64,000 nt of DNA from Aliiroseovarius halocynthiae (GTDB taxonomy: Bacteria > Pseudomonadota > Alphaproteobacteria > Rhodobacterales > Rhodobacteraceae), in contig NZ_ML660019.1 of assembly GCF_007004645.1 (NCBI RefSeq), positions 1,012,437 to 1,076,436 of the forward strand, given 5' to 3'. This document shows, piece after piece, positions 54,058 through 62,586 of the stretch. Every line of letters starts with the position of its first letter. Positions within the stretch are counted from its first letter, which is position 1. The notes beneath the pieces are model-generated. The model worked only from the letters and a program-made list of their open reading frames with translations, was not told the DNA's origin and did not search any database. A program made the translations under genes and the position numbers.

Positions 54058-55865
54058 CAAAACGCCTGCCCAATCCCAAGATAGATCTGAACTCCGTCAC
54101 CTGTGTCGCCGGAAACCGGTCCGGCCACATCCAACCGCAGCGGCCCGATGGGTGTTTTATAGCGCAGTCCCAACCCCGCGCCTGCGTGCCAGTCTCCGTT
54201 CCCTGCAAACAGGCTGTCATCACTGATATGCCCGGCATCTGCGAATGCCACGACGCCGATTGTGTCGGTGATGGTCGCGCGCAGCTCGGTCGATACGGCC
54301 AAATACGATCGCCCACCGCGCAGCCCGTCTGTTCCGACAGGAATGCCCAAAGATTGATACGGTTGCCCGCGCACGGAATTTCCGCCGCCCGAGAAGAACA
54401 GGTATTCCGGCGGGATGTCCTGTACACTGTCGGAATAGACTGTGCCCGCGTGCACACGCCCTGCCAGCACAAAGCGGTCGCCTGCTCCCAGCCCACGATA
54501 GGCGCGGGCATCGACAAAGCCGCGCGCGCCGCTTCCACCATCGTTCAAGGACAAAAACGGTGTGATTTCAGCCCGGACATAGGTGCCGTCTGTGGCATCC
54601 AACATGTCATTGCGTCGATCCCAGGTCAGGCCCACGGGTAAAGTCAGGTGGAAAAACTCTCGGTTTCCAAAGACATCTGTCGTGTCCGAGTAATGAACGC
54701 CAACACCGATTTCGCCCGTCAACGTATCTGAGAATATACGCGTCATGCCGACACCCAAATTGACGTTGCGCGAGATATAGGCCGGTTCGTCCTCGTAGGC
54801 CGCATTCACAAAGCCAAAAGCCGTGGTGTCAGGTCCAAAGGTGGCGGGTTGTTCCAGTCGCGCGCCAAGGCGGTAATCGATGCCGCCGCTTTGCCCCCCG
54901 ATCCCGGTGACCTCGCCCTCGACGCGGAACCTTTCGGCACCGCCCAGAAAATTGCGGTGCATCCAGAAACCGGATAGGCCGATCCCTTCAAGGGACGAAA
55001 GCTCGGCCCCGAACCCAAAGCGGCGCGGCTTTTCATCGGCCAGCGCCAAATCGACATCCAGCGTGTTGTCGGGGTTTAGAACCTCGGCCTCGGTCAGGGC
55101 GACGGACGAAAACGCGCCCGTACGGCGCAGCCGGTTGGCGACCTTATCCAGCGCTTCGGGCGAATACACGGTTCCCGTCGGAAAGCCAGCAATTCGCGCG
55201 ATGCGATCAGATCTGATGGTGCTGTCAGACGTTTGGGTCATTGTGCCAAAACGGGCTTTGGGGCCGGGTGAAAATCGTAGATCAGCGGACAAGGTCTTGC
55301 GGGTGTGATCGGCGGTGACGCGTTGCCCCGTCAGAGTGGCCTTGGGGTGTCCGGCTTGGCGCCACGACAGATGGGCTGCGTCGGCGGCGGCCTGGATTTG
55401 CGTGCTTTCGGCGCGCTCGCCACTGCGAAACCCCTTGGGCAACACGGTACCCTGCGCCAGTGGGGCCACACGTGCAGTGCCAAAGGTAAAGGGGTGTCCC
55501 GGGTCGACCGTGACGGCGATCTTGTTGATACGTGCGGGCAGGTGGAACACCGGAATGCGCCCGGCTTCGCGCCCGTCGACCAAGACCCGTACCACGCCGC
55601 CATAGTACCCGTTGGCATAGAGCACCTCGGTCAGGCGGCCATATTCTGCCAAGGCGGCGGCCATGACATCACGGGGATCGGTTTCGTCGTCCGCTTTGGC
55701 AGTTTGCACCAAAGAAGCTGCGTTGATTGCGCTTTCAAGATCGCTGTCAGCGCCCAGTACGGTGATCTCGACTTCGTCCAACGCCAGCGCAGCTTGCCCA
55801 AACACGGCCAAAGCAGCGGGCACACACACGTGGCGCCATACCGGCGCGACACTTAACTTTTTCAA
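54057..55865 (-). CDS. tamA: Outer membrane Omp85 protein TamA
   Basis: A 602-residue Omp85 family protein with a signal peptide ending around FGQAALA-LDEVE, POTRA domains (about residues 30-260) and a C-terminal sixteen-stranded barrel. The barrel shows FFSGGGNSVRGQPYQSLG, the RGQP-type Omp85 motif, and ends in an aromatic (QIYLGIGQAF). TTG 55865 is the best start: AAGGAA lies about seven bases upstream and the signal peptide begins immediately. Longer frames reaching 56174 would cross into the neighbouring operon. tamB follows with a TGATG overlap. Confidence 0.9.
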   Translation of the reverse strand: MKKLSVAPVWRHVCVPAALAVFGQAALALDEVEITVLGADSDLESAINAASLVQTAKADDETDPRDVMAAALAEYGRLTEVLYANGYYGGVVRVLVDGREAGRIPVFHLPARINKIAVTVDPGHPFTFGTARVAPLAQGTVLPKGFRSGERAESTQIQAAADAAHLSWRQAGHPKATLTGQRVTADHTRKTLSADLRFSPGPKARFGTMTQTSDSTIRSDRIARIAGFPTGTVYSPEALDKVANRLRRTGAFSSVALTEAEVLNPDNTLDVDLALADEKPRRFGFGAELSSLEGIGLSGFWMHRNFLGGAERFRVEGEVTGIGGQSGGIDYRLGARLEQPATFGPDTTAFGFVNAAYEDEPAYISRNVNLGVGMTRIFSDTLTGEIGVGVHYSDTTDVFGNREFFHLTLPVGLTWDRRNDMLDATDGTYVRAEITPFLSLNDGGSGARGFVDARAYRGLGAGDRFVLAGRVHAGTVYSDSVQDIPPEYLFFSGGGNSVRGQPYQSLGIPVGTDGLRGGRSYLAVSTELRATITDTIGVVAFADAGHISDDSLFAGNGDWHAGAGLGLRYKTPIGPLRLDVAGPVSGDTGDGVQIYLGIGQAF

Positions 55866-55984
55866 ACTAAAGTTCCTTGCGAGCAGCACAACATTCCCCA
55901 ATGAAGAAAGCCTAGCCCGTCGGGGGGGAAAGCTCCACAGGAATTGCCGGGTCGGCAGGATTTCGCCTTGCACCCTACACGGGC

Positions 55985-56755
55985 TTAATCTGCAAGTTCC
56001 ACATCGAACAACCGGCAGATCTGAGGTCGCCGATCTGACACGCCTGCAAGCCTTAGCATGTGCCAGACAAGTGCGGTGTTGCTGGACAGAACAGGGATCC
56101 CCAGCTCGGCCTCTAGCTGCGGGATGATGTTCAGGCACCGCAGATTTGTGCAGGATATGACCAATGCGTCGCACGGTGTGGCTTTGGGGGCGGCATTGGC
56201 AACGTGTCGGGCGGCGTTTTGAATGGCTTGTTCGGAAATTCGCGCAACCACGCGGTCATCGCTTTCCTCGAACGATCCACCAGCAGAAATGTGAAACCCC
56301 GCCTCTTCCAGCTTGTCCCGCATCCGCTGCGAAACGTCGGGGATGTAAGGTGTGATGAAGCCAAGGTTTGTCACGCCTAGGGCACGTGCAGCCGCAATCA
56401 GCGCGGCCAAGGGGTCGGTCACTTTCACGTTTGGGCGCACGCTTTGAATGGCAGCGGCCACTTTGTCGGACCCGATCACGGTCGAGGCCGACGTGCAGCC
56501 ATATCCGATCACATCAAAATCCAACGATGACGGCAATAGACGGGTCGAGGCGGGCAGGTCCTTCAGCATCATCGCCAGCGTATCCGGGCGGATCTCGGTC
56601 ACCATGGGGATGCGGCTGTGATAGCGCGCAACGCCGTCGATATCCGCCATTCGGGCAAACTCGGCCTCGAGCGTCTCGTCTGTTTCCAAAACGATCATGC
56701 CCAAATTGGCGCGGGTCCCGATGCCGTCATCTGTGTCAAACTCAAGTTTCAGCAT
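55985..56755 (-). CDS. Asp/Glu racemase family protein, EutA/maleate isomerase-like
   Basis: A 256-residue member of the two-cysteine racemase superfamily that includes maleate isomerase, arylmalonate decarboxylase and the ectoine-linked EutA. Active-site cysteines are in IGYGCTSASTVIG and VISCTNLRCLNIIPQL, each flanked by the expected Thr/Ser residues. NLGFITPYIPDVSQRMRD is a further family block. It is the last gene of the four-gene catabolic operon, seven bases after the M24 gene. Substrate is unknown. Confidence 0.8.
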   Translation of the reverse strand: MLKLEFDTDDGIGTRANLGMIVLETDETLEAEFARMADIDGVARYHSRIPMVTEIRPDTLAMMLKDLPASTRLLPSSLDFDVIGYGCTSASTVIGSDKVAAAIQSVRPNVKVTDPLAALIAAARALGVTNLGFITPYIPDVSQRMRDKLEEAGFHISAGGSFEESDDRVVARISEQAIQNAARHVANAAPKATPCDALVISCTNLRCLNIIPQLEAELGIPVLSSNTALVWHMLRLAGVSDRRPQICRLFDVELAD

Positions 56756-56762
56756 AAGTGCC

Positions 56763-57956
56763 TCATATCACCGGCAGATCCACAGGCGCGCGCTTCGTCA
56801 ACAGCTTTGCGCCGTCTGCCCGCACAACGATGTTTTCTTCATGAACCATGATGCGCCCATCCCCATAAGAAAGCGAGGGTTCCAGTGTCAGGACCATGTT
56901 TTCCTCGATCACCGTGTCGTCAAACGCGGCGTGGGATGGCCATTCGGTCAGCTGCATGCCCAACCCGTGCCCCAATCGCCCGACATCTCCGCCCTGATCA
57001 TCAAGTTCTGCGATCACGGCCTGCATGGCGTGAAACAGTTCGCGACAGGTGGTGCCGGGGCGTGCAGCAGCAATGCCGGCTTCTGTTGCGCGCCACAGAA
57101 CATCATAGGCCCGGCGCGAGGCATCGTCGGCGCGTCCAACGGCCCAGTTCCGGTCAAAGTCGCAGTAATACCCATCCCACGTGGCACCGGTGTCCAGCAT
57201 GAAGATATCCCCGCGTTGCAACGGTCGGGGCGAGGGCGGCGAGATCACATCGTGATACCCCCCCTGATCCGCGCCGCCGACCAGATAGGGCACGTCATCT
57301 GCGCCCTGATACAGCGCCTCGCGTCGGAACAGCCGGAACAGATCTTCGAATGCCAGCCCCTCGCGGGCAAGTTTCGGTACTTCGTCGAATGTGCGGGACC
57401 CGATAGAGCAGATATGGGTCAGTTTTTCGATTTCGGCCTCGGATTTCACCATGCGCAGGGCGCGGATCAACGGTGTTGCGTCCGTAACCTTCAAGCCGGG
57501 CAGGGCGGCCATCAATCGTTCATAGTCGCCCAATGGCATGCGAAGATGGGTCTCGTGCCCCTTCAGCATGCCCAACCGTCCGCCTGTGTCGGCGACAGGG
57601 GCCAAAAGCTCGGTCAGCAAGCTGATCCCATCATCGGACGGGGCGGGCGCGCTCCAGGTGCGGATGTCGTCAATCCACGTCTGGTGCATCAGCTCGGCTC
57701 CGATTTCCGGGATGATCGCGATGGGTTTGCCAGCTGCCGGGACGAACAAGAACCACGGTCGCGTGGGGCTTTGCCAAAACAGCGTATGGAAACCGCTGAA
57801 ATAGCGAATTTCCGGTTCGGTCAAAAGCAACAGCCCGTCCAGCGCGTGCTGCGCCATAAGGGCTTGCAGCTTTTGGGTGCGCAAGGCGAACTCGCTGGCT
57901 GGAAACCCGCGTATCGGCGCGTTTGGCGCACCAAGGGGAGGCTGCACATTAGACAT
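56763..57956 (-). CDS. M24 family metallohydrolase, ectoine hydrolase/creatinase-like
   Basis: A 397-residue pita-bread hydrolase. The N-terminal domain has RYFSGFHTLFWQSPTRPW, as in ectoine hydrolase (DoeA/EutD) and related proteins, and the C-terminal catalytic domain carries all five metal ligands in DTGATWDGYYCDFDRN (two Asp), LGHGLGMQLTEWP (His), LTLEPSLSY (Glu) and VHEENIVV (Glu). This fits a Xaa-Pro peptidase-like metal hydrolase. DddP, a DMSP lyase of the same fold, is less likely because it is larger. The ATG overlaps the end of the upstream ammonia-lyase-like gene by eight bases. Ectoine as substrate is only a possibility. Confidence 0.78.
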   Translation of the reverse strand: MSNVQPPLGAPNAPIRGFPASEFALRTQKLQALMAQHALDGLLLLTEPEIRYFSGFHTLFWQSPTRPWFLFVPAAGKPIAIIPEIGAELMHQTWIDDIRTWSAPAPSDDGISLLTELLAPVADTGGRLGMLKGHETHLRMPLGDYERLMAALPGLKVTDATPLIRALRMVKSEAEIEKLTHICSIGSRTFDEVPKLAREGLAFEDLFRLFRREALYQGADDVPYLVGGADQGGYHDVISPPSPRPLQRGDIFMLDTGATWDGYYCDFDRNWAVGRADDASRRAYDVLWRATEAGIAAARPGTTCRELFHAMQAVIAELDDQGGDVGRLGHGLGMQLTEWPSHAAFDDTVIEENMVLTLEPSLSYGDGRIMVHEENIVVRADGAKLLTKRAPVDLPVI

Positions 57957-59142
57957 GATCAGCACCAGCCATGATGGCTTCGAAAATGGCCGGATCGGTG
58001 ACACCTTCGGAACCAATCAGCAAAACACGTGAATTTGCATCCAGACCAAGCGTGTCAGACAGTGCCGGATCCTGCCGTGCAGCGATCAGCGCTGCCAATC
58101 CCGCCACCGCGCTTTCACCTGCCTCGACCACGTGATCTCCGGTTTCGCCATTTGCCAGCAGACGCACTGTCGGGGCGACTATGCTGTCGGGAATGGTCAG
58201 GAAATCTGCGGCCTCTTCCGTCAGGATGCTCCACGCCATTTCGGAAGGCTCTCCGCAAGACAGACCCGCCATGATGGTTTCTTCGGCGATCTCGAACGTT
58301 GTGGGCTTGCCGGATTTCGCGCTGTCGAACAAACAGGCCGCCAGTTCTGGTTCAACGATCACCACACGAGGCGAAATATCTTTGTAATACTGTCGCAGGC
58401 CTGCTGCGACCGAGGCTGCCAGCCCGCCCACGCCGCCTTGCAGGAAAACATGTGTGGGCGGCTGTTCCAGTGTCTCGCAAACCTCGCGAGTCATGACGCC
58501 ATAGCCCGCCATCACATCGCGGGGCGGTTCGGTATAGCCGTCCCATGATGTGTCCGAAACCACGAACCAGCCGTTTTCTTCGGCCTCGGTTTTGGCCAAG
58601 ATGACCGATGCGTCATAGTCGCCGTCGATGCGGATCACGTCGGCACCCAAATTGCGCATCGCCTCGGCGCGGCCTTCGCTGACCTCGGCGTGGATATAGA
58701 TGCGGCAGGGTGCGCCGAACCGCTGACAGCCCCACGCCAAGGATCGCCCGTGATTGCCATCGGTGGCCGACACTAAGGTGATCTTTGCGCAGGCCTCGCG
58801 GTGTTCGCCGCTGCGGATCTCTTCCAAGCTGGCATCACGGCCCAGCTGCGTAGTTAACTGGCGTTGTAACACGCGCAGGGCGGCATAGGATCCCCCCAGT
58901 GCTTTGAAGCTGCCCAGCCCAAAACGGGCCCCTTCGTGTTTATAGTCGATCCGGGCAACGCCCAGCTGGTCGGCCAATCCGTCAAGCGACACCAATGGGG
59001 TTGGCGTGTATCCATCCCAGGCCATGATCTCGTCGCAGGCATTTGCGAAGTCTTGTTCGGACAAAACACGAAACGCAGCTTTCGCAGCGGTTGGGTTTCC
59101 TGCCGTGTGGCACAAGGTGGCCGTATTGAAAATATCTTTCAT
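57949..59142 (-). CDS. Diaminopropionate ammonia-lyase-like PLP enzyme
   Basis: A 397-residue fold-type II PLP enzyme. It follows the diaminopropionate ammonia-lyase (DpaL/YgeX) pattern, not that of the shorter EutB dehydratase: KHEGARFGLGSFKALGG with PLP-lysine Lys80, SATDGNHGRSLAWG containing one of the catalytic Asp residues, SDTSWDGYTEPPRDVMAGYG with the second, FLQGGVGGLAASVAAGLRQ for phosphate binding, and the late LIGSEGVTD block. Such enzymes convert 2,3-diaminopropionate to pyruvate and two ammonia. Start overlaps none; the M20 gene ends two bases earlier. Substrate identity is inference. Confidence 0.82.
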   Translation of the reverse strand: MKDIFNTATLCHTAGNPTAAKAAFRVLSEQDFANACDEIMAWDGYTPTPLVSLDGLADQLGVARIDYKHEGARFGLGSFKALGGSYAALRVLQRQLTTQLGRDASLEEIRSGEHREACAKITLVSATDGNHGRSLAWGCQRFGAPCRIYIHAEVSEGRAEAMRNLGADVIRIDGDYDASVILAKTEAEENGWFVVSDTSWDGYTEPPRDVMAGYGVMTREVCETLEQPPTHVFLQGGVGGLAASVAAGLRQYYKDISPRVVIVEPELAACLFDSAKSGKPTTFEIAEETIMAGLSCGEPSEMAWSILTEEAADFLTIPDSIVAPTVRLLANGETGDHVVEAGESAVAGLAALIAARQDPALSDTLGLDANSRVLLIGSEGVTDPAIFEAIMAGADHV

Positions 59143-59144
59143 GA

Positions 59145-60302
59145 TCAGTCCTTTCGGGCGGGCAGGCGATCCTGCACGAGCTGTGTCCAGAACGCGGCCC
59201 CAATGGGCAAAAGCGCGTCGTTAAAGTCATAATCCGAGGCGTGCAAGGGCTGGCCATGCGCGCCCTCGGTGCCATTTCCAAGCAGCAAAAAGCAGCCCGG
59301 AACGGCGGCAGAGAAATGAGCGAAATCTTCCGAAAAGCTCATTGGTTGGCGATCCGGGATAACGTCACATCCTGCCTCTTGCGCAGCGCGGCAGACGGCT
59401 TGTGTTGGAATGTCTGCATTTATGGTTTCGATGAACTCGGTTTGGAAACCGACGGTCGCAGTAACCCCATGGGCCGCGGCTACTCCATCGGTGATCTGGC
59501 GCATGAAACGCTCGATCGCGTGACGGTCATCCGGCGTGCGGGCGCGCACATCTCCTTTCAATACGGCACGCCCCGGCAACACATTGCGCTGTCCGTCTGT
59601 CACGAACTCGGTCACCGAGACCACAGCCCCCGCACCGGGGGGAAGTTTGCGCGACACGATGGTCTGCAGGGCTTGCACAAGTTCGGCTCCGACGGTGATC
59701 GCATCCACCCCAACCTGCGGCATCGAGGCATGGCCCCCCTGACCTTGAACGGATATTTCAAACAGGCTTTCGCTGCTACAGATAAGGCCGGGCCGGGTCG
59801 ACACCTGACCCACCGGCGCACCCGGCAGATTGTGAATGGCATAGACCTCGTCGATTGGGAAACGTGTCAGGGTGCCATCGTTGATCATGGCCTGAGCACC
59901 AAGCCCATGTTCTTCATTCGGTTGGAAGATGAACACCACAGTGCCGTCAAAATCCGCGTCATTTACCAGCGTTTCAGCCGCGCCCAGCAACATGGTCATA
60001 TGTCCGTCATGCCCGCAGGCATGCATCACGCCAGGGGTGTCCGACGGGTAATCGTGATCCGAGGTTTCAAGGATCGGAAGCGCGTCCATATCTGCCCGCA
60101 AGCCGATGGCGCGATTTCCTGTGCCTTTGCGCAATATGCCGATGACGCCAACACCTTCATGCACTTCAATCCCCATATCGCGAAGATGCTGGGCAACCAT
60201 GGCTTTGGTTGCGTCTTCTTTAAAGCCAAGCTCGGGGTGGCGATGAAACTGTCGCCGCAATTCAACCAAGTGATCCACGTAGTTCTCCTGTTTCGTCTGC
60301 AT
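59145..60302 (-). CDS. M20 family amidohydrolase/deacylase (hippurate hydrolase-like)
   Basis: A 385-residue zinc amidohydrolase that removes an N-acyl group from an amino acid. It has HRHPELGFKE, GLRADMDALPI with the first metal Asp, HACGHDGHMTMLLGAAE with Cys/His ligands, the NEEHGLGA-type catalytic Glu (QPNEEHGLGAQAMI) and late MSFSEDFAHFS. The dimerisation insert holds GGHASMPQVGVDAI. It is the first gene of the minus-strand operon; start 60302 has GGAAG upstream and avoids overlap with the divergent Lrp gene. It belongs to a different family from the AstE/AspA-type ectoine deacetylase DoeB. Confidence 0.85.
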   Translation of the reverse strand: MQTKQENYVDHLVELRRQFHRHPELGFKEDATKAMVAQHLRDMGIEVHEGVGVIGILRKGTGNRAIGLRADMDALPILETSDHDYPSDTPGVMHACGHDGHMTMLLGAAETLVNDADFDGTVVFIFQPNEEHGLGAQAMINDGTLTRFPIDEVYAIHNLPGAPVGQVSTRPGLICSSESLFEISVQGQGGHASMPQVGVDAITVGAELVQALQTIVSRKLPPGAGAVVSVTEFVTDGQRNVLPGRAVLKGDVRARTPDDRHAIERFMRQITDGVAAAHGVTATVGFQTEFIETINADIPTQAVCRAAQEAGCDVIPDRQPMSFSEDFAHFSAAVPGCFLLLGNGTEGAHGQPLHASDYDFNDALLPIGAAFWTQLVQDRLPARKD

Positions 60303-60334
60303 ATCATAGCGAGCTTCCAGGCATGTTGATCGTC

Positions 60335-60363
60335 GAAATTTTTCAAAGGCTTTCTGAAAATTC
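60335..60363. promoter_or_regulatory. Putative Lrp/AsnC binding region between divergent genes
   Basis: Two AT-rich inverted-repeat-like sequences, GAAATTTTTC (60335-60344) and GAAAATTC (60356-60363), have centres about 20 bases apart (two helical turns), in the 96-base gap between the divergent M20 and Lrp genes. This spacing is what an Lrp/AsnC octamer would bind. Confidence 0.4.
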
Positions 60364-60398
60364 TTGTATATCGGATCAGATGATATGATTTTCGGACC

Positions 60399-60848
60399 AT
60401 GGACGACAAAGACCTTCAAATCCTCAGCTTGGTGCAATCGAACGCGCGCCTAACCGCAGATACCCTTGGCGAACAGGTGGGCCTGTCCCCGGCGGCGGTT
60501 CAAAAGCGCCTGAAAAAGCTGAAAGAGACTGGCGTGATCGAACGTGAAATCGCAGTGCTTTCTCCGTCCAAGTTGGATCGGGAACTCACTGTGATTGTTG
60601 AAGTCATTTTAGAGCGAGAGAACCGGCAGAAACTGGATGCTTTCAAGAAGAAGATGCGCAATACGCCGTCGGTTCAGCAGTGCTATTACACGACCGGCGA
60701 GGCGGATTTCCTGCTGATACTATCCATGCGTGACATCAAGGAATATGAAGCTTTCACGCAGGAGCATTTCTTTGAGGCCTCCAATATCAGCCGTTTCAAA
60801 ACCTCGATCGTAATGGACCGGGTGAAGACGTCTTTGGATGTGCTTTAG
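60399..60848 (+). CDS. Lrp/AsnC family transcriptional regulator
   Basis: A 149-residue regulator with an N-terminal winged helix-turn-helix (DLQILSLVQSNARLTADTLGEQVGLSPAAVQKRLKKLKETG) and a C-terminal RAM (ACT-like) effector-binding domain ending in FKTSIVMDRVKTSL. It is divergent from the four-gene operon, and linked Lrp proteins of this sort usually respond to the substrate or an intermediate of the adjacent pathway. The start at 60399 lacks a strong ribosome binding site. (Full HTH run is longer than quoted motifs in other entries; key residues are the LSPAAVQKRLKKL recognition region.). Confidence 0.9.
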   Translation: MDDKDLQILSLVQSNARLTADTLGEQVGLSPAAVQKRLKKLKETGVIEREIAVLSPSKLDRELTVIVEVILERENRQKLDAFKKKMRNTPSVQQCYYTTGEADFLLILSMRDIKEYEAFTQEHFFEASNISRFKTSIVMDRVKTSLDVL

Positions 60849-61472
60849 CGCGGTTCTTGTACTGGTTTGACGATGTATCCTGCCTTCCCTGCGACTGGCG
60901 TGCACCTCAAAATGTCCCGTGACATTATGGCGGCGATCTAATGTGGCAATGGCGGGTCCTGAAACTCGCGGCAGAGTGGTTCAGACAAGGCAACCTTTGA
61001 TGCTTTCATCAGCTTAGCAAAAGTCGCGAATGGTAGCAGGTGTTTTGCTTGCTCGTGTGGGTGGCGAGCACTGCCTGCAGCGCGTTGGGAGCGTGGGGCG
61101 TCGTCAGTTTCGGGGCAGGTGATGCCAATAGTGCCCTCCATGGGATGGCCCAGCTCGGTTGTCCAGTTAAATGGGGTGTCGTGATCTCGGGATGCATATC
61201 TGTCTCCGCGTTAAAGTGGAGCTCTCTGATTATCATCAGTCGACGGGCACGCTCTGCGGACACGCGGGGGACGTGGGTTCGCGGGGAAAAACAGAAAATG
61301 CATGTGTGGACCGGCTTGATCGCGGGCAGGAACGCGCCTGCGCCAGTAAAAACCGGTTTTTCAAAGTTTGAGGTGGGGTAATGAAATGGTCAAATGCACC
61401 TCTTAAGAATAGGAGGTGCCGGGCAATGGGTCAGAAGTTCTGTGCAAGCTTTTGTGCAAAGCTTTGTGCAAC
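60849..61472. other. Unassigned region between the Lrp gene and tRNA-Asn
   Basis: About 620 bases with no gene I can support. Two weak open frames (61040-61381 plus, 61009-61263 minus) overlap and look non-coding. A hairpin GCACCTC/GAGGTGC lies at 61396-61419 and three direct copies of a TTGTGCAA-type unit at about 61436-61471 (TCTGTGCAAGC, TTTGTGCAAAG, TTTGTGCAACA). Composition and the tandem repeat next to a tRNA 3' end could mark an old insertion scar. Confidence 0.45.
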
Positions 61473-61509
61473 AAAAAAACCCGCCCGATTTCTCGGAGCG
61501 GGTTTTTTG
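61473..61509. terminator. Bidirectional terminator beside tRNA-Asn
   Basis: AAAAAAACCCGC and GCGGGTTTTTT form a stem of about 12 pairs enclosing a secondary CCGA/TCGG hairpin. T runs appear on both strands, so it can end the minus-strand tRNA transcript and transcripts arriving from the left. Confidence 0.85.
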
Positions 61510-61536
61510 TTTTCAATCAATGCCTTGCGGTGTGAT

Positions 61537-61611
61537 TGGCTCCGGCGGTAGGGATCGAACCTACGACCAATTGATTAACAGTCAACTGCTCTACCGCTGA
61601 GCTACGCCGGA
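61537..61611 (-). tRNA. tRNA-Asn(GTT)
   Basis: On the minus strand the acceptor stem TCCGGCG (61611-61605) pairs with CGCCGGA (61547-61541), followed by G and CCA. The D arm has AGCTCAGCGGTAGAGC, the anticodon loop CTGTTAA contains GTT, and the T arm has GGTTCGATCCC. Length is 75 bases with encoded CCA. Confidence 0.97.
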
Positions 61612-61659
61612 ACATGGGGGGCTTATAGCTAGGGCGATTTCGGGCTGCAAGAGGCGAAT

Positions 61660-62586
61660 TTAACTTTTTTCGTCCATCATTCGGAAAAATGCATTGGCCT
61701 CGAGATGTGGAGCGGCGCTCACGATTTCGCGGGTCGCCAGGTCAATCAAATGGGCAAAGACATTTCGCTCGGCGGCGGGGATCAAGGCGCCTGGTGTATC
61801 GGTGTAGATTTCCCGAGTTAGGCTGGACACAGATGCTGTTTTCATTCGTGTCAAAGCGGTACGGATCTCGGCCTCGCGTGTTAGACGGTGCTGAATCAGC
61901 CAGTTCAACCTTGTCGCCGGATTATCAATTTGACCGCCATGAGCCGGATAGAAAACGCGGTCCTTACGGGCGGCCAATTTGTGGCACGAGGCCATAAACG
62001 CAGTCAGGTCACCATCGGGTGGTGACACAAAAGAACTGGCCCAAGCCATAATATGGTCGCCTGTAAAAACAGCGCCTTGCGTGGCGAAGCATAAGTGGTT
62101 GGCGAAGTGGCCGGGGGTCCAGATGGCCTCGATTTGCAGTCCGCCTGCGGTGAAGATCTCTCCATCCGACAGGGTGATGTCGCACTTGAACGATGCATCC
62201 ACGCCCTCGCCGCCGGAACTCAACCCGCGTTCCACGAGATCACGCATGACGTCGCTGCGACCTGACTGCGCGTCTCCAAAGGCTAGGACGGGGGCTTTGG
62301 TTGACTCAGACAGGATGCGTGCCAGTGGAGAGTGGTCCAGGTGGGCATGAGTCACAAGAATATGCGTGATACGTTCGCCTTGCTGAAGCCCGTCCAGCAG
62401 GGCTCGCATGTGCGAAAGATCAGGTGGCCCAGGATCGATCACAACCACATCACCTTCCCCCAGAACGAATGTATTGGTGCCCCAATAGGTCATGGGTGAG
62501 GGGTTGGGCGCGATGATCCGGCGTATGCCGGGTTCGATCCGTTGCATGATACCTGTACCGGGCGGTGTTGCGTGATCAGGTGCCAT
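61660..62586 (-). CDS. Metallo-beta-lactamase fold hydrolase (LACTB2-like)
   Basis: A 308-residue hydrolase. The metal-binding signature is VTHAHLDHSPLARIL (H-x-H-x-D-H), with further His in TPGHFANHLCF and an Asp in VFTGDHIM. A C-terminal winged-helix-like part follows. Members cleave thioesters, RNA or small phosphoesters; the substrate here is unknown. Start 62586 has AAAGG nine bases upstream, and a longer frame to 62700 would overlap the divergent kinase gene. Confidence 0.83.
   Translation of the reverse strand: MAPDHATPPGTGIMQRIEPGIRRIIAPNPSPMTYWGTNTFVLGEGDVVVIDPGPPDLSHMRALLDGLQQGERITHILVTHAHLDHSPLARILSESTKAPVLAFGDAQSGRSDVMRDLVERGLSSGGEGVDASFKCDITLSDGEIFTAGGLQIEAIWTPGHFANHLCFATQGAVFTGDHIMAWASSFVSPPDGDLTAFMASCHKLAARKDRVFYPAHGGQIDNPATRLNWLIQHRLTREAEIRTALTRMKTASVSSLTREIYTDTPGALIPAAERNVFAHLIDLATREIVSAAPHLEANAFFRMMDEKS

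What the first reader, a model, noticed from the sequence alone, without database searches (positions are those of the whole stretch)
55985..60848. Four-enzyme catabolic operon with a divergent Lrp regulator, ectoine-like but different
The operon order is M20 deacylase, diaminopropionate ammonia-lyase-like enzyme, M24 hydrolase and EutA-like protein, with an Lrp regulator opposite. Ectoine eut/doe clusters also pair an M24 hydrolase, a EutA protein and an AsnC regulator. Here, however, the deacylase is M20 and not AstE/AspA type, the PLP enzyme is DpaL-like and not EutB, and EutC and an ABC importer are absent. The set suggests breakdown of an N-acylated or cyclic diamino acid, releasing pyruvate and ammonia. 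I do not know of a described pathway with this combination.
Basis: partly seen in the sequence, partly recalled or inferred. Interest (0 to 1): 0.7.

Follow-up and report, generated by a model that had tools for sequence, protein, structure and literature searches.

The report
Widespread ectoine-like nutrient breakdown gene cluster
A set of four enzymes and a switch gene, found in many sea bacteria, looks like machinery for eating a small salt-protectant molecule that resembles, but is probably not, the known molecule ectoine.

Summary
The operon is real: a divergent Lrp gene and tightly packed M20, DpaL-like, M24 and EutA-like genes. It is probably not an ectoine pathway. Its M24 and relatives keep the five metal ligands of prolidases (D, D, H in 142 of 142 rows; both E in the 141 covering them); ten EutD-like rows keep neither Asp nor the His. 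The window genome has no EutD above cut-off. The set recurs in marine Gammaproteobacteria: of the 33 closest loci, 27 hold all four enzymes plus Lrp, 24 also a TRAP transporter. That transporter's binding protein is closest in the PDB to ectoine-binding UehA and TeaA, but TeaA F66 is His in 30 of 30. DpaL keeps both diaminopropionate-lyase aspartates. Four of 19 genomes carry, instead of DpaL, a shorter lyase at the same locus that lacks one aspartate. Best reading: breakdown of a zwitterionic, ectoine-like or N-acylated diamino acid to pyruvate and ammonia. The substrate is not shown; M20 and even DpaL can be missing; M24 plus EutA is the core.

The parts
60399..60848 (+). Lrp/AsnC-family regulator, divergent
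   Evidence: Pfam AsnC_trans_reg 2.4e-18; Lrp genes 68-80% identical in 16 other fetched loci, in 12 of them divergent from M20 or DpaL
60356..60393 (.). Putative Lrp operator: inverted repeat GAAAAT-N26-ATTTTC, 38 bases
   Evidence: Same GAAAWT-N26-AWTTTC geometry in 5 of 13 divergent gaps (window, L033, L034, L046, L032); 2000 mononucleotide shuffles average 0.015 loci, none reach 5. Motif chosen after seeing the sequences; inference
59145..60302 (-). M20 amidohydrolase/deacylase
   Evidence: Pfam Peptidase_M20 2.9e-37; TIGR01891 317 bits (cut-off 154, met); DoeB2 325 bits (cut-off 550, not met); YgeY 30 bits (cut-off 321, not met)
57949..59142 (-). PLP-dependent diaminopropionate ammonia-lyase-like enzyme
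   Evidence: PRK08206 480 bits (cut-off 276, met), TIGR01747 287 (274, met), TIGR03528 329 (532, not met); aligns over 43-391 with the solved diaminopropionate ammonia-lyase 4d9g; both Asp kept
56763..57956 (-). M24 hydrolase, metal-binding prolidase-like type
   Evidence: Pfam M24 1.6e-34 and Creatinase_N; nearest solved chain Xaa-Pro dipeptidase 1pv9, five ligand positions aligned; EutD model 46 bits, cut-off 613
55985..56755 (-). EutA-like protein of the aspartate racemase / maleate isomerase / arylmalonate decarboxylase superfamily
   Evidence: TIGR02990 EutA 189 bits (cut-off 318, not met); Pfam Amdase 2.4e-20; two Cys kept

Best explanation
The operon is a catabolic module, controlled by its divergent Lrp protein, for a zwitterionic ectoine-like small molecule: a cyclic amidine or an N-acylated form of a 2,3-diamino (or other beta-substituted) amino acid. 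Relatives import it with a TRAP transporter of the TeaA/UehA type. The M24 enzyme, a metal hydrolase, opens the ring or cuts the amide. M20 removes a remaining acyl group where needed. The EutA-like two-cysteine enzyme sets the configuration at a carbon. The DpaL-like PLP enzyme then deaminates the free diamino acid to pyruvate and two ammonia. Shown by sequence: enzyme classes, intact catalytic-type residues, conserved linkage, transporter kinship. Inferred: regulation by the substrate, order of steps, substrate class, products.
For: Gene set conserved: 27 of the 33 closest loci hold DpaL, Lrp, EutA, M20 and M24; 24 also the TRAP genes. DctP best PDB hits UehA 3fxb 210 bits and TeaA 3gyy/2vpn 208/198; next 4pfi 181, then 111. 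In 30 of 30 DctPs TeaA R144, W167 and N184 are kept, E9 in 29 with one gap, while F66 is His and F209 Tyr; a TRAP protein next to a true DoeB2 cluster keeps F66. One Rhodobacterales-family locus, L046, carries the same TRAP (67% identity) beside M20-M24-EutA. DpaL D120 and D189 kept in 94 of 95 rows each. DpaL above cut-off for PRK08206. A DpaL clade with 96/86 support, 43 of its 48 rows M24-linked, spans Alpha- and Gammaproteobacteria.
Against: The window genome has no close DctP (best 25% and 27% identity), so the transporter argument is by proxy. The two gammaproteobacterial EutAs compared are 31 and 34% identical to the window's, so the two groups may have recruited different EutAs. M20 orthologues are absent from 7 of 19 genomes; three congeners keep only M24 plus EutA at the locus (L237-239). 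The M24-linkage label needs 9 changes on the DpaL tree, so it is not one event. Other loci link M24/EutA with betaine-type ABC transporters and FAD/GCV_T demethylase-like genes, which suggests N-methylated substrates. A EutD-like gene (57-65% identical) lies near in L049, L066 and L149, without EutB, C or E. Of the 47 weaker M24 loci, 20 have no EutA, DpaL, M20, PALP330 or EutB nearby (some contigs are short). No chemistry was tested.
Confidence: 0.42

Rival explanations
1. Use of N-acyl-diaminopropionate or diaminopropionate-containing peptides: M24 as dipeptidase, M20 as aminoacylase, EutA as racemase, DpaL as final lyase.
For: M24 nearest solved relatives are Xaa-Pro dipeptidases. An M19 membrane dipeptidase lies beside some M24-EutA loci (Pfam on L038 and L064; L046 by clustering; L119 by tblastn). 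The M20-DpaL-Lrp triad without M24 or EutA recurs in 6 of 17 further DpaL loci (L210, L211, L213, L214, L216, L217).
Against: The transporter conserved in the gammaproteobacterial loci is an ectoine-type TRAP, not a peptide importer.
Confidence: 0.22
2. An alternative 5-hydroxyectoine route. EutA inverts the hydroxyl, M24 and M20 open and deacetylate, and the DpaL-like enzyme eliminates water or ammonia from 3-hydroxy-2,4-diaminobutyrate.
For: 5-hydroxyectoine's ring derives from a beta-hydroxy diamino acid (recalled chemistry), a plausible target for a PLP beta-eliminating enzyme. The linked TRAP protein is UehA/TeaA-like. EutABC are proposed to act on hydroxy-ADABA and hydroxy-DABA (PMC13188858 introduction passage).
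Against: The M24 is not the EutD type, EutC is absent from 80 loci, and the binding pocket lost F66 in 30 of 30. No EutD over cut-off in the window genome.
Confidence: 0.15
3. Breakdown of an N-methylated, betaine-like solute. M24 plus EutA is the true core; DpaL and M20 are accessories.
For: L050 and L247 place M24 and EutA with GntR, FAD/GCV_T and a glycine-betaine-type OpuAC ABC transporter, L247 also with PhyH (Pfam); L246 matches L247 by clustering. L121 has MTTB (Pfam) and FAD/GCV_T next to DpaL and M24; L125 and L140 match by clustering. M24 is in 19 of 19 genomes, DpaL in 15, M20 in 12.
Against: The window operon has no demethylase gene, and FAD/GCV_T was not matched in the 33 closest gammaproteobacterial-type loci.
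Confidence: 0.15
4. An ordinary ectoine catabolic cluster that has diverged.
For: Same enzyme classes and AsnC/Lrp regulator; UehA-like transporter in relatives. A EutD-like gene lies near related loci L049, L066 and L149.
Against: M24 metal ligands intact, against 0 of 10 EutD-like rows for H and both D. M24, M20 and EutA fall below ectoine model cut-offs. No DABA transaminase or dehydrogenase in the window operon.
Confidence: 0.04

Closest known systems
Ectoine/5-hydroxyectoine catabolism (eutABCDE / doeABCD, with uehABC or ehuABCD)
   Same: M24 enzyme, deacylase, EutA-like protein, PLP enzyme, AsnC/Lrp regulator; TeaA/UehA-type TRAP in relatives
   Different: M24 keeps metal ligands; DpaL-like instead of EutB; no EutC or EutE in 80 M24 loci; altered SBP pocket; no DABA transaminase in the operon
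DoeA2/DoeB2 variant of ectoine degradation (NF038259/NF038260)
   Same: M20-type deacetylase near an M24-family enzyme
   Different: Window M20 325 bits against cut-off 550; M24 40 bits against 575; DoeA2 proteins of L199-L201 lack the metal ligands
Reductive uric-acid pathway (YgeW, YgeY, YgeX, HyuA, SsnA, YgfK)
   Same: An M20 enzyme feeding 2,3-diaminopropionate to a diaminopropionate ammonia-lyase giving pyruvate
   Different: Window M20 is not YgeY (30 bits against 321); no HyuA, YgeW, SsnA or YgfK in the operon; M24 and EutA extra
   Same: Three of the five genes
   Different: No M24 or EutA nearby; these DpaLs fall outside the M24-linked clade

Membership tests
Ectoine catabolic cluster (eut/doe) | EutD/DoeA-type M24 hydrolase | tested here: not met
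   TIGR02993 46 bits, cut-off 613; metal ligands D, D, H kept 142/142 against 0/10 in EutD-like rows
Ectoine catabolic cluster (eut/doe) | EutE/DoeB (AstE type) or DoeB2 deacetylase | tested here: not met
   DoeB2 325 bits, cut-off 550; no EutE in 80 M24 loci
Ectoine catabolic cluster (eut/doe) | EutB and EutC | tested here: not met
   PLP enzyme scores 56 bits on EutB (cut-off 413); no EutC in 80 loci, EutB-like (33%) in 3
Ectoine catabolic cluster (eut/doe) | EutA | tested here: not met
   TIGR02990 189 bits, cut-off 318; both Cys shared with S. meliloti EutA
Ectoine catabolic cluster (eut/doe) | Ectoine-specific importer | tested here: inconclusive
   None next to the window operon; relatives carry a UehA/TeaA-type TRAP with changed pocket
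Ectoine catabolic cluster (eut/doe) | Growth on ectoine | not testable with these tools
   needs mutants
Diaminopropionate ammonia-lyase | Family model over cut-off | tested here: met
   PRK08206 480/276 and TIGR01747 287/274 met; TIGR03528 329/532 not met
Diaminopropionate ammonia-lyase | Schiff-base Lys and two Asp of the solved enzyme (roles recalled) | tested here: met
   ATDGNHG and SDTSW in the window; K 95/95, each D 94/95 over DpaL rows
Diaminopropionate ammonia-lyase | Activity on D- and L-diaminopropionate | not testable with these tools
   enzyme assay needed
M24 metallopeptidase (prolidase-like) | Five metal ligands D, D, H, E, E (positions recalled, aligned to 1pv9) | tested here: met
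   142/142 for D, D, H and 141/141 covered for E, E
YgeY/YgeX uric-acid module | YgeY-type M20 | tested here: not met
   PRK13004 30 bits, cut-off 321

The most novel reading that the evidence does not exclude
Marine bacteria make and eat an unrecognised ectoine-like compatible solute built on 2,3-diaminopropionate, for example a five-membered 2-methylimidazoline-4-carboxylate. This operon is its dedicated pathway: modified TeaA-type uptake, metal-dependent M24 ring opening, M20 deacylation, EutA epimerisation and DpaL cleavage to pyruvate and ammonia.
Probability: 0.14. Interest if true: 0.87.

Novelty: new variant of a known kind. Interest (0 to 1): 0.58.

Why it matters
If right, a module found in many marine bacteria (the window's family, Vibrionaceae, Oceanospirillaceae and others) feeds on a zwitterionic solute whose identity is unknown, next to the well-studied ectoine cycle. 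The TRAP binding protein, with its fixed change in the ectoine pocket, gives a direct way to find that solute by ligand screening. It also warns that 'EutA' or 'ectoine-like' annotations in marine genomes may mislead: an EutA-like match alone (162 of 295 genomes of the family) may overcount ectoine users.

Tried and rejected
Ectoine cluster proper: disfavoured on M24 ligands and model cut-offs. DoeA2/DoeB2 variant: tested with true DoeB2 loci (3 of 299 genomes over cut-off; contexts) and rejected. YgeY/YgeX module: window M20 is not YgeY. A promoter/terminator scan gave no more than shuffles. No tandem repeats in 55000-62000. The gap after eutA has no unusual RNA fold (z 1.34). Paper searches listed no description of this gene set; this covers only open-licence PMC papers and those terms. 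The first gene-calling pass was length-only and gave likely antisense calls; later passes used codon-position GC. The 555-777-aa gene beside M19 was not resolved.

Rows dropped: EutA 1 of 49 and M24 1 of 41 short rows. For the DpaL tree, proteins under 250 aa were skipped and the rows of 18 listed loci, mostly near-duplicates, were left out of the 96 found; 78 plus EutB were used. Residue counts used rows covering over 75% of the reference, M24 at least 40% and EutA at least 28% identical; of 142 M24 rows 138 are distinct. Some loci are the same genome fetched twice, judged by equal contig lengths (L202/L085, L203/L154, L056/L155). DctP: 27 of the loci L082-L161 with a match over 50% identity, plus L080, L076 and L046. 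The ten EutD-like rows are S. meliloti itself, two at 60-65%, three DoeA2 at 30-31% and four at 23-33%, so not all are proven ectoine hydrolases.
Full report
Observation. The five genes are present as stated. They are tightly packed: 2 bases between M20 and the lyase, an 8-base overlap between the lyase and M24, 7 bases between M24 and EutA. Lrp is divergent across a 96-base gap. Proteins P0001 and P0003 carry two and one extra N-terminal residues from my choice of coordinates. The genome is a 3.39-Mb draft in 29 contigs, 99.99% complete.

Families. The lyase passes two of three diaminopropionate ammonia-lyase models; M20 passes only the general amidohydrolase model; EutA and M24 stay well under the ectoine models. 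The best NCBIfam hit of the M20 is nevertheless DoeB2, an M20-type ectoine deacetylase, under its cut-off.

Discriminating residues. Aligned to the solved Xaa-Pro dipeptidase 1pv9, the window M24 keeps the five metal-ligand positions (that these are the ligands is recalled). Over 142 M24 rows (138 distinct) D, D and H are kept in 142, and both E in the 141 that cover them. Ten EutD-like rows keep none of D1, D2 or H; three of them are clear EutDs (60-100% identical to S. meliloti's), three are DoeA2 proteins of true DoeB2 loci, four are distant. The DpaL-like enzyme keeps the two aspartates of the solved enzyme (94 of 95 rows each). The numbering D120 and D189 and their roles are recalled from the E. 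coli enzyme's paper, which was not held. EutA rows keep the two cysteines in 116 and 115 of 116.

Distribution in the family. Of 295 genomes of the window's family, 162 have an EutA-like match at E 1e-20; 18 besides the window have it at 59% identity or more. Among those 19 genomes M24 is present in 19, DpaL in 15 and the M20 orthologue in 12. In two (G241, G100) the M24 is unlinked. The four genomes without DpaL each have a 330-aa paralogue (37-39% identical) at the same locus, and none of the 15 with DpaL shows that paralogue at the same threshold. The paralogue lacks the first aspartate in 14 of 14 rows, those four included.

The genus. 19 of 21 genomes have the M24 at E 1e-100. Of 20 loci looked at (window and 19 fetched, two from one genome), the window and 7 others hold all five genes beside TamA and TamB, with the MBL-fold gene matched on the other side in the window and 5 of the 7; three (L240-242) hold all five at another site; three (L236, L243, L244) hold DpaL, M24 and EutA (L243 is a short contig); three (L237-239) hold only M24 and EutA; and three (L245-247) have a variant with GntR, PhyH, EutA, FAD/GCV_T and an OpuAC-type transporter, in L245 apparently broken or poorly resolved. 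PhyH and OpuAC were shown by Pfam for L247 only.

Beyond the family. Among the closest 33 (70-79% identical), 27 hold DpaL, Lrp, EutA, M20 and M24, and 24 of these also TRAP DctPQM. They come from Vibrio, Enterovibrio, Grimontia, Motiliproteus, Neptunomonas, Marinobacterium, Zobellella, Denitromonas and others. Of the nine others, three are Thalassospira with the five genes but no full TRAP, two are cut by contig ends (L098, L100), two Marinomonas lack DpaL nearby, and two (L102, L104) have fewer genes. Among the weaker 47, EutA is near in 14, DpaL in 13, all four enzymes in 3, and none of EutA, DpaL, M20, PALP330 or EutB in 20. A Photobacterium plasmid and the Vibrio record pTHAF64_a carry the same order with TRAP.

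Transporter. The linked DctP matches UehA (3fxb, 210 bits) and TeaA (3gyy, 2vpn, 208 and 198 bits); the fourth is 4pfi (181, ligand not known to me) and the fifth falls to 111 bits. That 3FXB is UehA and 2VPN is TeaA with ectoine is stated in PMC5924519 (passages). The arginine-carboxylate contact is stated in PMC6344544 and the aromatic contacts in PMC2871039 (passages); residue numbers were counted by me on the alignment and their single contacts are recalled. In all 30 DctPs R144, W167 and N184 stay, F66 becomes His, residue 67 Leu and F209 Tyr. A TRAP protein beside a true DoeB2 cluster keeps Phe at 66. This is the strongest hint that the solute is ectoine-like but not ectoine. The window genome has no close copy, so the hint reaches the window only through its relatives; L046 in the same family bridges the two groups.

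Phylogeny. In a 79-row DpaL tree, one clade (support 96/86; 48 rows, 43 with M24 within 8.5 kb) joins Alpha- and Gammaproteobacteria. Two of its other rows, L034 and L035, have their M24 elsewhere in the genome. Of 11 rows with M20 but no M24, seven lie outside it. The M24 label as a whole needs 9 changes on the tree (shuffled mean 18.1), and M24-linked L134, L147 and the 14 short paralogues lie outside, so linkage arose or was lost more than once. The EutA tree places the two gammaproteobacterial EutAs with S. meliloti EutA on long branches that may attract falsely.

Regulation. Five of 13 divergent gaps, the window's included, share an inverted repeat of identical 38-base geometry near the lrp start. 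The motif was picked after looking and the shuffles were mononucleotide, so this is a lead, not a proof.

Mechanism. I commit to a pathway for an ectoine-like or N-acylated diamino acid: import by a TeaA-like TRAP or another carrier, amide or amidine hydrolysis by M24, deacylation by M20 where needed, epimerisation by EutA, and deamination by DpaL to pyruvate and ammonia, under Lrp control. Enzyme classes and linkage are shown by sequence; substrate, order and products are inferred. That M24 and EutA persist without DpaL or M20 nearby in some congeners suggests that these two do the substrate-specific work.

Against this reading. EutD-like genes lie near related loci L049 (65% identical, about 5 kb from EutA), L066 (60%) and L149, without EutB, C or E. 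Betaine-type transporters and demethylase-like genes accompany M24/EutA elsewhere, and M19 dipeptidases in a few loci. These keep the rivals open.

Known counterparts. Ectoine clusters (L077; PMC5924519 passages; PMC13188858 abstract and passages) use the same enzyme classes with different members. The reductive uric-acid pathway joins YgeY (M20) and YgeX to turn albizziin into pyruvate (PMC12507026 abstract and sections 8-9). Neither has this set. My paper searches listed no description of it.

Noticed in passing
L081 1485-11301 (Rhizobium daejeonense plasmid): A DpaL-like gene sits with dihydropyrimidinase, a Zn-dependent hydrolase, N-carbamoyl-D-amino-acid hydrolase and an ABC importer; perhaps another route to 2,3-diaminopropionate through ureido intermediates.
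   Followed up: no
L078 7947-9282 (S. meliloti pSymA): A EutA-like protein lies directly next to an L-2-amino-thiazoline-4-carboxylate hydrolase, suggesting that EutA-like proteins also serve other cyclic amidine carboxylates.
   Followed up: no
L246 3307-12900 and L247 3596-13200: Variant cluster in the window's genus: M24, GntR, PhyH dioxygenase, EutA, FAD/GCV_T oxidoreductase and a glycine-betaine-type OpuAC ABC transporter (Pfam on L247; L246 by clustering).
   Followed up: partly
L038 523-9159, L046 10110-16896, L064 2701-6983: A recurring neighbour module: aldehyde dehydrogenase, M19 dipeptidase, a 555-777-aa protein without a Pfam hit in the two copies tested (L038, L064), DUF3726, Ldh_2 (not all parts in each) and, in L038, a BCCT transporter.
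   Followed up: partly
L049 3463-4641, L066 11759-12919: EutD-like genes (65% and 60% identical to S. meliloti EutD) within 10 kb of M24-EutA loci, without EutB, EutC or EutE matches in the stretch.
   Followed up: partly
L143, L146, L148, L157: Acidimicrobiales loci pair EutA and M24 with a PhyH dioxygenase and, in L143 and L146, a 2OG-Fe(II)-oxygenase-family gene (Pfam on L143; others by clustering).
   Followed up: no
PDB 4pfi: Solved TRAP binding protein shares the Gly-His-Leu pocket signature with the operon-linked DctPs; its ligand is not known to me.
   Followed up: no
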